64,000 nucleotides of DNA from Flavobacteriaceae bacterium (GTDB lineage: Bacteria > Bacteroidota > Bacteroidia > Flavobacteriales > Flavobacteriaceae). Under the pieces are notes generated by a model. It saw only the letters and a program-made list of their open reading frames with translations. It did not search any database and was not told the DNA's origin. Both the position numbers and the translations under genes were made by a program. How positions within the stretch are numbered: the first letter of the stretch is position 1; each line of letters begins with the position of its first letter. Location of the stretch: contig SIHP01000004.1 in the NCBI GenBank assembly GCA_004762155.1, forward strand, positions 62,001 through 126,000, in the 5' to 3' direction. This document shows positions 33,140 through 36,600 of this stretch, one piece after another.

Positions 33140-33985
33140 ATGAAAAAACTTTATTTATTGATTATAGTGTTATCGATTTTTTCTTGTAAAAACAATAAGT
33201 CAGAAGTTATAAGTAAACAAGAAAAACCTCAACAAAAACAGCATGTTATAAAAAATTTTCAAACAATTATAGACTCTGCAAATGTTGAAGGTGCTATTTT
33301 AGTTTATGATTTAAATAAAAATACATATTATTCAAATGATTTCAAATGGATAAAAAAAGGATTTCTACCAGCTTCTACTTTTAAAATACCAAATTCAATT
33401 ATTGCATTAGAATCTGGTTTAGTAAAAAATGATAGTGCTTTGTTTATATGGAAAGGAGAAAAAAGAGGTATGAAAGTTTGGGAACAAGATTTAACTCTTA
33501 AACAAGCGTTTCATTTTTCTTGTGTTCCTTGTTATCAGGATATTGCTAGAAGAATAGGTGTGAAAAGAATGAAAAGCTATGTAAAGAAGCTTAATTACGG
33601 TAATATAAAAGTAGATTCAACTTCTATAGCAATGTTTTGGTTAGAAGGAGCATCACAGATTAATCAATTACAACAAATAGACTTTTTAAAGAGATTTTAC
33701 GCATCAGAATTACCAATTTCTAGAAATACAGAGACTATCATGAAAAGAATGATGTTGATTGAAGAAACAGAGACTTATAAAATAAGTGGAAAAACAGGAT
33801 GGTCTATCAGAAATGGAAATAATAACGGATGGTTTGTAGGTTATGTAGAGTCTGAATCAAATGTTTATTTCTTTGCAACTAATATTATACCCAAGAAAGA
33901 TTTTAATATGAATATGTTTCCGTTAATACGAAAAGAAATCACTTATAAAGCATTAAAAAAAATGAATTTAATCAAAGAAAAATAA
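33140..33985 (+). CDS. Class D (OXA-like) beta-lactamase family lipoprotein
   Basis: The 281-residue protein has a lipoprotein signal (lipobox IFSC, Cys16). All class D motifs are present: STFK (Ser79 to Lys82, the Lys normally carboxylated), SCV (127-129), YGN (153-155), WLEG (167-170) and KTG (218-220). The Trp is the residue that stabilises the carboxylated Lys. This completeness predicts an active serine beta-lactamase or a closely related penicillin-binding enzyme in the periplasm. The spectrum cannot be read from sequence. It lies 1 nt after the SH3 gene, so both are co-transcribed. No sign of a transposon or integron is seen, so it looks like an intrinsic gene. Confidence 0.88.
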   Translation: MKKLYLLIIVLSIFSCKNNKSEVISKQEKPQQKQHVIKNFQTIIDSANVEGAILVYDLNKNTYYSNDFKWIKKGFLPASTFKIPNSIIALESGLVKNDSALFIWKGEKRGMKVWEQDLTLKQAFHFSCVPCYQDIARRIGVKRMKSYVKKLNYGNIKVDSTSIAMFWLEGASQINQLQQIDFLKRFYASELPISRNTETIMKRMMLIEETETYKISGKTGWSIRNGNNNGWFVGYVESESNVYFFATNIIPKKDFNMNMFPLIRKEITYKALKKMNLIKEK

Positions 33986-34071: not shown

Positions 34072-36600
34072 ATGAATTTAAATCAACCTGTAACATACAT
34101 AAAAGGCGTAAGCGTTGCACGTGCAGAATTGTTATATTCAGAATTGGGAATAAAAACATGTAATGATTTATTACACTTGTTTCCCTTTAGATATATAGAT
34201 AAAACACAATTTTATGAAATTAAAGATTTAAGAGAAAACTCTTCGGAAGTACAAATTGCAGGAAAAATAACAGGTTTTCAAGAAGTAAAGCAAAAACGAG
34301 GCAGTAGGTTAGTTGCAAAATTTACTGATGGTTCTGGAACTATAGATTTAGTTTGGTTTAAAGGTACCAAATGGATTAAAGATAGTCTAAAACTAAATAT
34401 TCCTTATGTTATTTATGGTAAACTAAATTGGTATAACGGAATGGCGAATATGCCACATCCAGAATTAGAATTAGTTTCAGAATATAAAAGAAAACTTCAA
34501 ACAGCATTACAACCCGTTTATCCTTCAACAGAGAAGTTAACTAACAAAGGTCTTTCGCAAAAAATAATGCGAAATATATTGCAAAATTTATTTAAACAAG
34601 CTTACGGAGTTATACAAGAGGTGTTTCCTGCTGGTTTTATGGAAAAAAATCAGTTAATAGGAAAGAAAGAAGCTTTGTTAAATGTTCATTTTCCAAAAAA
34701 TCAAGAGCTATTAACACTTGCAGAATTTAGATTAAAATTTGAAGAATTATTCTTTATTCAATTACAATTACTAATAAAAAAACTCATCAATAAAAATAAA
34801 ATAAAAGGTTTTGTTTTTGAACATGTAGGAGAACAGTTTTCTAACTTTTATAACAATCATTTACCTTTTGAATTAACAAATGCTCAAAAGCGAGTTTTAA
34901 AAGAAATTCGCAAAGATGTAGCTTCAGGAGCACATATGAATCGTTTGTTACAAGGTGATGTTGGTTCTGGTAAAACCATTGTTGGTTTATTAAGTATGTT
35001 ATTAGCAATTGATAATGGTTATCAAACTACTATAATGGCACCTACTGAAATTTTAGCAACACAACATTATACAGGAATAATAGAATTATTAGAAGGAACT
35101 TCTATTAGAGTAGAACTTTTAACGGGATCTTCAAGAACAAAAAAACGTAGAGAAATTCATAGTGCTTTAGAAGACGGAAGTTTACATATTTTAGTAGGTA
35201 CACATGCTATTTTAGAAGATAAAGTTCAGTTTCATAATCTTGGGTTGGCTATTATTGATGAACAACATCGTTTTGGAGTTGCTCAACGAAGGAAATTATG
35301 GGATAAAAGCCCACCTCAATCCTCCCGAAGGGAGGAAGTCGTTACTGCACGTAAAGAGTATATGACTGCGCGTCCTTCTGTTTATGGATTGATTAAAAAA
35401 CTTCAGAAAGAAAGAAAGAAGCAAACAACAGAAGCTGAAAGAGCACTTTGGGAAATGTTAAAGACGAAACAATTAGGAGTTAAATTTCGCCGTCAGCATA
35501 TTATAGATAAATTTATTGTTGATTTTTTATGTTTTGAAAAGAAATTAATAATTGAAGTTGATGGAAAGTATCATGAAGAAACTGAACAACAAGAAGCAGA
35601 TGCTTTAAGAACTGAAATTTTAAACGAATTTGGTTATAAAATTATAAGAATAAAAAATGAAGATGTTTTAGGTAATATAGAAGAAACAGTAAAAAAGATA
35701 AAACAAGAAGTAGAAAGTCTCCCCTCTGGGGAGGTTGGAGGGGCTTCTCCACCACACATTTTAGTGATGACGGCTACACCAATACCAAGAACTTTAGCAA
35801 TGTCTGTTTATGGTGATTTAGATATTTCTGTAATAGATGAATTACCACCAGGTAGAAAAGAGATAAAAACAGTACATCGTTATGATAGTAATCGTTTATC
35901 TGTTTTTAAGTTTATTAGAGATGAAATTGAAAAAGGAAGACAAATTTATATAGTATATCCATTAATCCAAGAATCTGAAGCTATGGATTATAAAGATTTA
36001 ATGGACGGATATGAAAGTGTATCTCGTGAGTTTCCTTCACCAAAATATCAAATAAGCATTGTTCACGGACAAATGAAACCTGCCGATAAAGAACATGAAA
36101 TGAATCGTTTTGTAAAAGGAGAAACACAAATAATGGTAGCAACAACGGTTATTGAAGTAGGTGTAAATGTACCTAATGCTTCTGTAATGATTATAGAAAG
36201 TGCAGAACGTTTTGGATTAAGTCAATTACATCAATTAAGAGGTAGAGTTGGACGTGGAGCAGAACAGAGTTTTTGCATTTTATTATCGAGTTATCAATTA
36301 TCATCTGATGGAAAAACCCGTTTAAAAACAATGGTAGATACTTCAGACGGATTTAAAATAGCAGAAGTAGATCTAAAACTTCGTGGACCAGGGAATATTA
36401 TGGGAACACAACAAAGTGGAGTTTTAAATTTAAAAATAGCAGATGTAGTTAAAGATAGTCCTATTTTATACGAAGCACGCCAAGTTGCTATAAAGTTATT
36501 AGAAGAAGATCCAGGTTTATCACATCCCAAACATGGAACAATTAAGAAACACTTTTTAACACTTCAAAAATCTAGTGGTATTTGGAGTAATATTAGTTAA
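34072..36600 (+). CDS. recG: RecG helicase interrupted in frame by a DUF559 insertion
   Basis: RecG is a superfamily 2 helicase that regresses replication forks and unwinds branched DNA. The wedge/OB region is N-terminal (FPFRYID, then VQIAGKITGFQ). Walker A GDVGSGKT is at 295-302, DEQH at 396-399, TATP at 567-570 and RGRVGRG further on. The protein is 842 residues against about 693 for E. coli RecG. Residues 414-559 are an extra 146-residue segment between DEQH and TATP containing a DUF559 (Vsr-like PD-(D/E)xK) nuclease domain. Removing it leaves WDKSPPHILVM, the normal RecG sequence, and a 696-residue protein. The frame is intact throughout, so a fused protein is probably made. Confidence 0.95.
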   Translation: MNLNQPVTYIKGVSVARAELLYSELGIKTCNDLLHLFPFRYIDKTQFYEIKDLRENSSEVQIAGKITGFQEVKQKRGSRLVAKFTDGSGTIDLVWFKGTKWIKDSLKLNIPYVIYGKLNWYNGMANMPHPELELVSEYKRKLQTALQPVYPSTEKLTNKGLSQKIMRNILQNLFKQAYGVIQEVFPAGFMEKNQLIGKKEALLNVHFPKNQELLTLAEFRLKFEELFFIQLQLLIKKLINKNKIKGFVFEHVGEQFSNFYNNHLPFELTNAQKRVLKEIRKDVASGAHMNRLLQGDVGSGKTIVGLLSMLLAIDNGYQTTIMAPTEILATQHYTGIIELLEGTSIRVELLTGSSRTKKRREIHSALEDGSLHILVGTHAILEDKVQFHNLGLAIIDEQHRFGVAQRRKLWDKSPPQSSRREEVVTARKEYMTARPSVYGLIKKLQKERKKQTTEAERALWEMLKTKQLGVKFRRQHIIDKFIVDFLCFEKKLIIEVDGKYHEETEQQEADALRTEILNEFGYKIIRIKNEDVLGNIEETVKKIKQEVESLPSGEVGGASPPHILVMTATPIPRTLAMSVYGDLDISVIDELPPGRKEIKTVHRYDSNRLSVFKFIRDEIEKGRQIYIVYPLIQESEAMDYKDLMDGYESVSREFPSPKYQISIVHGQMKPADKEHEMNRFVKGETQIMVATTVIEVGVNVPNASVMIIESAERFGLSQLHQLRGRVGRGAEQSFCILLSSYQLSSDGKTRLKTMVDTSDGFKIAEVDLKLRGPGNIMGTQQSGVLNLKIADVVKDSPILYEARQVAIKLLEEDPGLSHPKHGTIKKHFLTLQKSSGIWSNIS
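35311..35748 (+). mobile_element. 438-bp in-frame DUF559 element in recG
   Basis: Flanking CCACC copies (35311 and 35749) resemble a 5-bp target duplication and are exactly 438 bp apart (146 codons). Each end carries a GC-rich hairpin: TCCTCCC-GAA-GGGAGGA (35320-35336) and CTCCCC-TCT-GGGGAG (35719-35733). The ends also form imperfect inverted repeats beginning AAGCCC. The interior encodes a DUF559 domain: TEAERALWEMLK, then RRQH, D484, E495, D497 and H501 in recG numbering (VDFLCF, IEVDGKYH), the expected catalytic set. There is no intein-type splicing motif and no separate start codon is needed. Base composition of the ends is unlike the flanking recG. Confidence 0.8.

What the first reader, a model, noticed from the sequence alone, without database searches (positions are those of the whole stretch)
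35307..35748. Selfish-looking, translated DUF559 nuclease element inserted in frame in recG
Between the DEQH and TATP motifs of RecG there are 438 extra bp (146 codons) encoding a complete DUF559/Vsr-like domain with D484, E495, D497 and H501. The ends carry GC-rich hairpins (TCCTCCC/GGGAGGA and CTCCCC/GGGGAG), form imperfect inverted repeats starting AAGCCC, and are bordered by CCACC direct copies exactly 438 bp apart. Removing it restores a canonical RecG of 696 residues. There are no intein splicing motifs, so the nuclease appears to persist as a fusion inside a working helicase: a protein-embedded mobile element that stays in frame and survives by being tolerated in a surface loop. I recall similar DUF559 segments with CCTCC/GGAGG ends elsewhere in Bacteroidota, unverified.
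Basis: partly seen in the sequence, partly recalled or inferred. Interest (0 to 1): 0.93.

Follow-up and report, generated by a model that had tools for sequence, protein, structure and literature searches.

The report
Splice-less mobile nuclease inside essential proteins
In this bacterium the gene for the DNA-repair helicase RecG carries, in its reading frame, a 438-base hairpin-ended cassette for a predicted DNA-cutting enzyme; related cassettes sit in frame in more than a dozen other kinds of gene in related bacteria, and they likely spread selfishly by being copied into empty target genes, apparently without any splicing.

Summary
RecG (34072-36600, 842 aa) holds a 438-bp in-frame cassette, AGCCC...GGGGCT at 35308-35745, encoding one DUF559 nuclease domain (E 2.8e-32). 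Both ends are GC-rich hairpins in imperfect inverted repeats. The domain matches the homing endonuclease I-Bth0305I by sequence and fold.

It is no one-off. Of 97 genus genomes, 24 have a filled RecG. On a 49-row RecG tree filled and empty alleles interleave, with at least 9 changes forced by supported branches. In several hairpin-bearing pairs, though not all, the insert is younger than its flanks; in hairpin-less pairs it is not. Related cassettes lie in frame in LeuRS, IleRS, ValRS, MetRS, MetH, PurL, UvrA, HsdR and others, and they group by insertion site. One MetH carries two copies. Hairpin ends also occur alone.

No intein or intron match was found. In LeuRS the domain is often catalytically dead yet conserved.

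Best reading: a splice-less, protein-embedded selfish element. Translation, nuclease activity and homing are inferred, not shown.

The parts
34072..36600 (+). recG open reading frame, 842 aa, with the insert read in frame
35308..35745 (+). the cassette, AGCCC...GGGGCT, 438 bp, 146 codons, no stop in the frame used
   Evidence: same kind of ends in other copies
35308..35336 (+). left end: AGCCCACCTCAA plus hairpin TCCTCCC(GAA)GGGAGGA
   Evidence: near-identical left ends at three further places of the genome at 0-1 mismatches
35404..35712 (+). DUF559 domain, RecG residues 445-547
   Evidence: insert model mean pLDDT 81.6, pTM 0.76
35521..35574 (+). predicted active-site codons D484, E495, D497, H501; E456 lies at 35437-35439
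35719..35745 (+). right end: hairpin CTCCCC(TCT)GGGGAG plus GTTGGAGGGGCT, imperfect inverted repeat of the left end
35746..35754 (+). Ser codon and RecG's own Pro-Pro codons; CCACC here is host sequence

Best explanation
It is a splice-less, hairpin-ended mobile cassette whose only product is a predicted EDxHD/Vsr-type (DUF559) nuclease, read in frame inside RecG here and inside many other proteins in related bacteria, and it likely spreads selfishly by nuclease-triggered copying into empty sites. Shown by sequence: the cassette needs no start or stop of its own; its palindromic ends carry no stop in the frame used; host and nuclease form one open frame; the same site is filled in some relatives and empty in others; inserts group by site; one gene carries two copies; single ends occur alone. 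Inferred: the host's translation makes the nuclease as an inserted domain; the nuclease cuts the empty allele and repair from a filled copy brings the cassette in (homing); rare jumps reach new sites; only in-frame, stop-free landings in tolerant loops survive; later the nuclease decays, and the insert is lost by an in-frame deletion that leaves a scar or is kept as a dead but conserved domain, as in LeuRS.
For: Patchiness: 24 of 97 genus genomes have a full-length filled RecG match. A tree of 49 RecG rows (24 filled, 25 empty; insert left out) needs 13 changes, at least 9 forced by starred branches. The short empty loop is ancestral: 18 of 24 parsed class-level loops have its 26-residue frame, and 14 of 25 genus empties keep it, interleaved with filled rows. 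Recent transfer: dS of insert vs flanks 0.052 vs 0.284 (L045/L047), 0.223 vs 0.863 (L035/L037), 0.228 vs 0.855 (L034/L037), 0.052 vs 0.179 (L035/L036); in hairpin-less pairs 0.246 vs 0.249 (L039/L041) and 0.260 vs 0.272 (L052/L053). In 6 of 15 chosen pairs the hairpin-free core lies below all 58 same-length flank windows; two are narrow and three share L037. Hosts: 20 proteins scanned, 14 over a curated NCBIfam cut-off. Site families: 84 cores need 9 label changes, shuffled mean 51.1. Ends: of 160 cores, GC-rich hairpin on the left in 107, right in 109, both in 86; background 25 of 314 windows; the two ends of one element resemble each other more than shuffled partners, 0.646 vs 0.529, sd 0.007. 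Jumps: two copies, 344 of 417 nt identical, at two sites of one MetH with like ends; a RecG in another family has the whole element at a second site and one hairpin end at the first. Coding: all 24 RecG inserts are a multiple of 3 long, median dN/dS 0.208 over 257 pairs. Nuclease: PDB 3hrl E 5.2e-27 and I-Bth0305I 3r3p E 1.6e-8; fold E 9.1e-7 and 1.7e-4.
Against: No cleavage, homing or protein evidence exists here. Other pairs that keep the catalytic motif show no younger insert: L054/L055, L046/L044, L043/L049, L045/L050, L048/L051, L034/L035. Flank divergence next to the insert is not consistently lowered, as co-conversion during homing would predict; a transposition-like step fits as well. 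Part of the patchiness is likely loss: 11 of 25 empty alleles have longer loops, some resembling scars. Filled and empty labels are only mildly clustered on the tree (13 changes, shuffled mean 16.6), and the RecG inserts form one group (support 87), so one old origin with losses and local exchange is not excluded. No target-site duplication was found. The cassette encodes no transposase. The closest filled/empty pair is 93.7% identical, so no strain-level polymorphism was seen. The motif is broken in 5 of 24 RecG inserts. In-frame lengths were read from alleles parsed in one frame, which favours them.
Confidence: 0.72

Rival explanations
1. A palindromic repeat family moved in trans by another enzyme (for example a Y1/HUH transposase), with DUF559 as passenger or helper.
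For: Single ends without the nuclease exist: left ends at three further places of this genome and right ends in frame in LeuRS and MetH of relatives. The genome has 4 Y1 matches, two of them with a stop inside.
Against: The two ends track each other and frame a nuclease of almost constant span. Of the 23 filled genomes that one search covered (the 24th, G096, was not drawn), 9 have no Y1 match. Only Y1 was tested, no other transposase.
Confidence: 0.12
2. One old insertion in RecG, passed on vertically and lost many times, with no continuing mobility.
For: RecG inserts form one group; insert and flank identities correlate (0.70 for nt); some empties look like scars.
Against: Pristine ancestral loops are interleaved with filled alleles and do not arise from a filled allele by simple deletion, since loop codons are replaced; insert dS is well below flank dS in several pairs; the same site is filled in another family (G875).
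Confidence: 0.1
3. A host-beneficial RecG-nuclease fusion: the nuclease domain serves DNA repair.
For: Domain under purifying selection (dN/dS 0.208); RecG acts on DNA.
Against: The same cassette sits in tRNA synthetases, MetH, PurL and HutU; it comes and goes; in 5 of 24 RecG inserts the motif is broken.
Confidence: 0.05
4. The segment is removed before it matters: RNA splicing, protein splicing or translational bypassing.
For: It would explain tolerance inside essential proteins; hairpins at both ends recall bypass elements (recalled).
Against: No Hint domain; one Rfam match, tmRNA, 12.8 bits against a threshold of 47; always an open frame with purifying selection on the protein; a dead domain kept in LeuRS.
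Confidence: 0.02

Closest known systems
Inteins with homing endonucleases
   Same: In-frame insertion into conserved genes, patchy occupancy, alleles grouped by insertion site, insert younger than host in some pairs
   Different: No Hint splicing domain, no His-Asn end; the insert appears to stay in the protein; ends are DNA palindromes
EDxHD homing endonuclease I-Bth0305I (PDB 3r3p) and Vsr; PMC9403480 assigns a cyanobacterial DUF559 gene to the EDxHD family (passage read)
   Same: Catalytic domain by sequence and fold
   Different: I-Bth0305I is described with group I introns and carries extra DNA-binding parts (PMC3943268, passages); here a bare domain between palindromes inside host proteins
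LAGLIDADG endonuclease domain in frame in an actinophage methylase, outside the intein (PMC9957025, passages)
   Same: Endonuclease domain inserted in frame and not part of an intein
   Different: One site, nine sequences, phages, another nuclease family; no palindromic ends in the passages seen
Rickettsia palindromic elements (search listing only; details recalled)
   Same: Palindromic DNA inserted in frame and translated in unrelated proteins; the solo ends here resemble them
   Different: They are short and carry no gene (recalled)
REP elements with RAYT/Y1 transposases, and MITEs (listings; details recalled)
   Same: Palindromic ends, solo copies
   Different: No Y1 transposase in the cassette, different nuclease fold, in-frame life
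Yeast WHO elements (PMC7282813, start of abstract only)
   Same: Unorthodox homing element
   Different: Yeast and HO-related; architecture not compared

Membership tests
DUF559 / EDxHD-Vsr nucleases | Profile match over the whole domain | tested here: met
   PF04480 positions 7-108 of 109, E 2.8e-32
DUF559 / EDxHD-Vsr nucleases | Active-site acidic residues and histidine | tested here: met
   D, E, D and H invariant, helix E at 90% or more, in 36 inserts; in 50 filled RecGs D497 falls below 90%
DUF559 / EDxHD-Vsr nucleases | Fold of solved members | tested here: met
   3hrl E 9.1e-7, 3r3p E 1.7e-4; Vsr 1vsr only E 0.066
DUF559 / EDxHD-Vsr nucleases | DNA cleavage | not testable with these tools
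   needs biochemistry
Intein | Hint splicing domain | tested here: not met
   no such Pfam match; DUF559 takes 103 of 146 residues
Intein | His-Asn at the C-terminal splice site | tested here: not met
   insert ends ...GEVGGA
Intein | In-frame insertion, alleles grouped by site | tested here: met
Homing element | Same site filled and empty in relatives | tested here: met
Homing element | Insert history differs from host history | tested here: inconclusive
   younger insert in several pairs, none in hairpin-less pairs, but also none in other pairs that keep the catalytic motif
Homing element | Co-conversion of flanks | tested here: inconclusive
   no consistent dip next to the insert in 14 pairs; low left-flank values in L034/L035, L035/L036 and at 150-450 nt in L045/L047
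Homing element | Nuclease cuts the empty allele only | not testable with these tools
   needs biochemistry
Group I/II intron or IStron | Intron RNA structure | tested here: not met
   nothing over threshold in Rfam, one chance-level tmRNA match
IS element / MITE | Paired inverted ends | tested here: met
IS element / MITE | Target-site duplication | tested here: inconclusive
   none shared by filled alleles; no near-identical empty allele
IS element / MITE | Transposase gene in the element | tested here: not met
   only nuclease-type models match inside the insert
Rickettsia palindromic element | Short gene-less palindrome in frame (recalled) | tested here: not met
   this cassette carries a nuclease; solo ends in LeuRS and MetH of relatives would fit

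The most novel reading that the evidence does not exclude
A new class of mobile element: autonomous, splice-less, protein-embedded transposons. Each is a bare EDxHD-type nuclease domain between stop-free palindromic ends that lives as a translated insert in essential proteins, homes into empty alleles of the same gene, now and then jumps to a new gene, and leaves behind solo palindromes or domesticated dead domains as new pieces of core enzymes such as LeuRS.
Probability: 0.6. Interest if true: 0.95.

Novelty: categorically new. Interest (0 to 1): 0.9.

Why it matters
Known elements that invade the inside of essential genes escape harm by splicing (introns, inteins). If this reading holds, there is a third way: be a small folded domain with stop-free ends and simply stay in the protein. 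That makes testable how many insert domains in core enzymes (LeuRS, IleRS, ValRS, RecG, MetH) are live or dead mobile elements, and it gives a natural set of loops that tolerate 146 extra residues. It also offers a compact nuclease cassette whose rules of target choice are unknown.

Tried and rejected
Target-site duplication from CCACC: rejected, both copies in 2 of 24 alleles. RNA element: Rfam gave one chance-level tmRNA match. Hairpin pattern with a spacer of four: 0 hits in the genome, since the loop is three; repeated with three, 3 places. Full-length RecG model: too poor to place the insert. A first end-finding script caught only 7 cores; it was replaced by a looser rule, 160 cores. Counting gains as pieces free of pristine rows overcounts once weak branches are collapsed (13, 14 and 15 pieces with a filled row at support 0, 80 and 95); I use the tree program's 9 instead. 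Literature: nine searches listed nothing on in-frame DUF559 cassettes; the library is open-access PMC only, so absence in print is not shown. Rows dropped: one of 50 RecG loci could not be parsed (L061); six of 30 class-level RecG loci; 15 of 40 loci gave no LeuRS insert row. One search labelled 40 of 80 named loci by keyword, counted 14 as free-standing and left 26 unlabelled; 11 of those 26 were scanned. The 15 pairs and 14 were picked by me from 276. Not tried: metagenome strain data, transposases other than Y1.

Full report
What is there. RecG of this genome is a single open frame of 842 aa. Pfam finds the usual RecG domains plus DUF559 at residues 445-547. The extra segment runs from AGCCC to GGGGCT, 35308-35745, 438 bp. 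Each end holds a GC-rich hairpin, and the two ends are imperfect inverted repeats. With the peptide kept and codons redrawn, such stems are rare (p=0.002 left, 0.004 right). Across the 24 filled RecG alleles of the genus the left stem passes p=0.022 or better in 13 and the right in 14.

The genome. A second DUF559 sits in frame in LeuRS of the same genome, with a broken active-site motif. The left end recurs at three other places of the genome at 0-1 mismatches, and in one more gene-to-gene gap at 3 mismatches; 7 places match at up to 3 mismatches, the reversed-pattern control gives 2. Named proteins near the top of the RecG list come from Tenacibaculum and Polaribacter, and one close locus is Tenacibaculum larymnensis, a Flavobacteriaceae; the family is my inference.

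Presence and absence in RecG. Of 97 genus genomes, 24 gave a full-length match to the filled RecG, with open frames of 844-872 aa. I parsed 49 RecG loci, 24 filled and 25 empty; the site is always LWxK | insert | PPH. Of the empties, 14 have the short 26-residue loop, and 18 of 24 parsed class-level loops have the same length, so it is ancestral. On a tree built without the insert, filled rows need 13 changes, at least 9 forced by starred branches; 23 of 500 label shuffles did as well, so the label is only weakly clustered. Eleven empties have longer loops; two (L059, L060), close to filled alleles, look like scars that keep traces of both ends. So both gains and losses are likely.

Age of the insert. 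Among the closest filled pairs, inserts with hairpins are in several cases much less diverged at synonymous sites than the host gene: 0.052 vs 0.284, 0.223 vs 0.863, 0.228 vs 0.855, 0.052 vs 0.179. Pairs that lost the hairpins show none of this: 0.246 vs 0.249 and 0.260 vs 0.272. Of these two, L039/L041 keeps the catalytic motif and L052/L053 does not. Without the hairpin regions the core still lies below all 58 flank windows in 6 of 15 chosen pairs, two narrowly and three of them sharing L037. Against this, L054/L055, L045/L050, L048/L051, L034/L035, L046/L044 and L043/L049 show no gap. No consistent dip was seen in the flanks beside the insert. Exchange at this site is thus supported for some lineages, not for all.

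Other hosts. DUF559 occurs in 65 of 97 genus genomes, 208 of 395 family genomes and 223 of 392 phylum genomes; these counts include free-standing genes, and the match lists were capped. NCBIfam named 20 host proteins. Fourteen pass a curated cut-off: ValRS, MetRS, UvrA, PurL, HutU, MazG, ABC-F, WecB, IleRS, MetH, HisD, HisF, HsdR and LeuRS. Six are tentative: RecB-like, HemD, HsdM, a dTDP-glucose dehydratase relative, an IGHMBP2-type helicase and one weak match. In HisD, HisF and HemD the domain is at an end, not inside. Of 80 named loci, 66 lie in frames over 200 aa and 14 in short frames.

Site families. A tree of 84 nuclease cores groups them by insertion site: 9 changes where 7 is the least possible, shuffled mean 51.1. 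MetH (13 rows, starred) and HemD (4, starred) are single groups; RecG (24) has support 87. The alignment is short and some long branches meet. This is what site-bound homing alleles would give.

Ends and jumps. Of 160 cores with intact motif, 107 have a strong GC-rich hairpin on the left, 109 on the right and 86 on both sides, against 25 of 314 background windows. The two ends of one element are more alike than shuffled partners (0.646 vs 0.529, sd 0.007), so they behave as pairs. One MetH (G278) carries two cassettes at two sites, 344 of 417 nt identical, both in frame and with like ends. A RecG in another family (G904) has the whole cassette at a second site and just a right-end hairpin at the first. 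Right ends alone sit in frame near the start of LeuRS (L070; a degenerate one in L148) and of MetH (L127, L134).

Fate. At the LeuRS site 8 of 25 parsed inserts keep the catalytic motif and 17 have lost it. The 17 dead ones are still under purifying selection, median dN/dS 0.133 over 135 pairs, against 0.086 for LeuRS flanks. In RecG, 19 of 24 keep the motif.

Nuclease. The profile of six inserts finds PDB 3hrl (E 5.2e-27) and the intron homing endonuclease I-Bth0305I (E 1.6e-8). The model of the insert alone (pLDDT 81.6, pTM 0.76) matches the same two by fold; Vsr follows at E 0.066.

Mechanism. I infer a selfish cycle: made as part of the host protein, the nuclease breaks an empty allele and repair copies the cassette in. 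Which DNA it cuts is unknown. Transposition by another enzyme remains possible: of the 23 filled genomes covered, 14 have a Y1 transposase match and 9 have none, so Y1 at least seems not to be needed for upkeep.

Novelty. The nearest precedents are inteins, an in-frame LAGLIDADG domain in phage methylases (PMC9957025, passages) and Rickettsia palindromic elements (listing and recall). None combines a nuclease, palindromic ends and a splice-less life in many proteins. Nine searches of the open library found no account of it, which does not prove that none exists.

Noticed in passing
window 33140-33985 (+): Class D beta-lactamase gene upstream of recG (NF012161, E 8.1e-82); described only.
   Followed up: no
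L003, L086-L101 (LeuRS): A catalytically dead DUF559 domain is kept under purifying selection inside LeuRS in 17 of 25 parsed inserts: a likely domesticated element.
   Followed up: partly
L182 and L187 (own genome, C2:53430 and C2:51018): Short palindromic elements with cassette-like ends in gene-to-gene gaps that look like trp genes by reading; no nuclease inside.
   Followed up: partly
L070, L127, L134, L148: Right ends alone, in frame, near the N-termini of LeuRS and MetH; the one in L148 is degenerate.
   Followed up: partly
L072, L076, L077: Free-standing DUF559 genes outside other genes also lie between GC-rich hairpins.
   Followed up: partly
L129, L133, L147, L151, L229, L226, L233: DUF559 fused at the end of HemD (either end), HisD (C-terminal) and HisF (N-terminal): the cassette may also capture start or stop regions.
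   Followed up: no
L065, L066, L068, L236: HsdR carries cassettes at more than one site.
   Followed up: no
window 35728-35754: Sub-threshold Rfam tmRNA match over the right end, 12.8 bits against 47; taken as chance.
   Followed up: no
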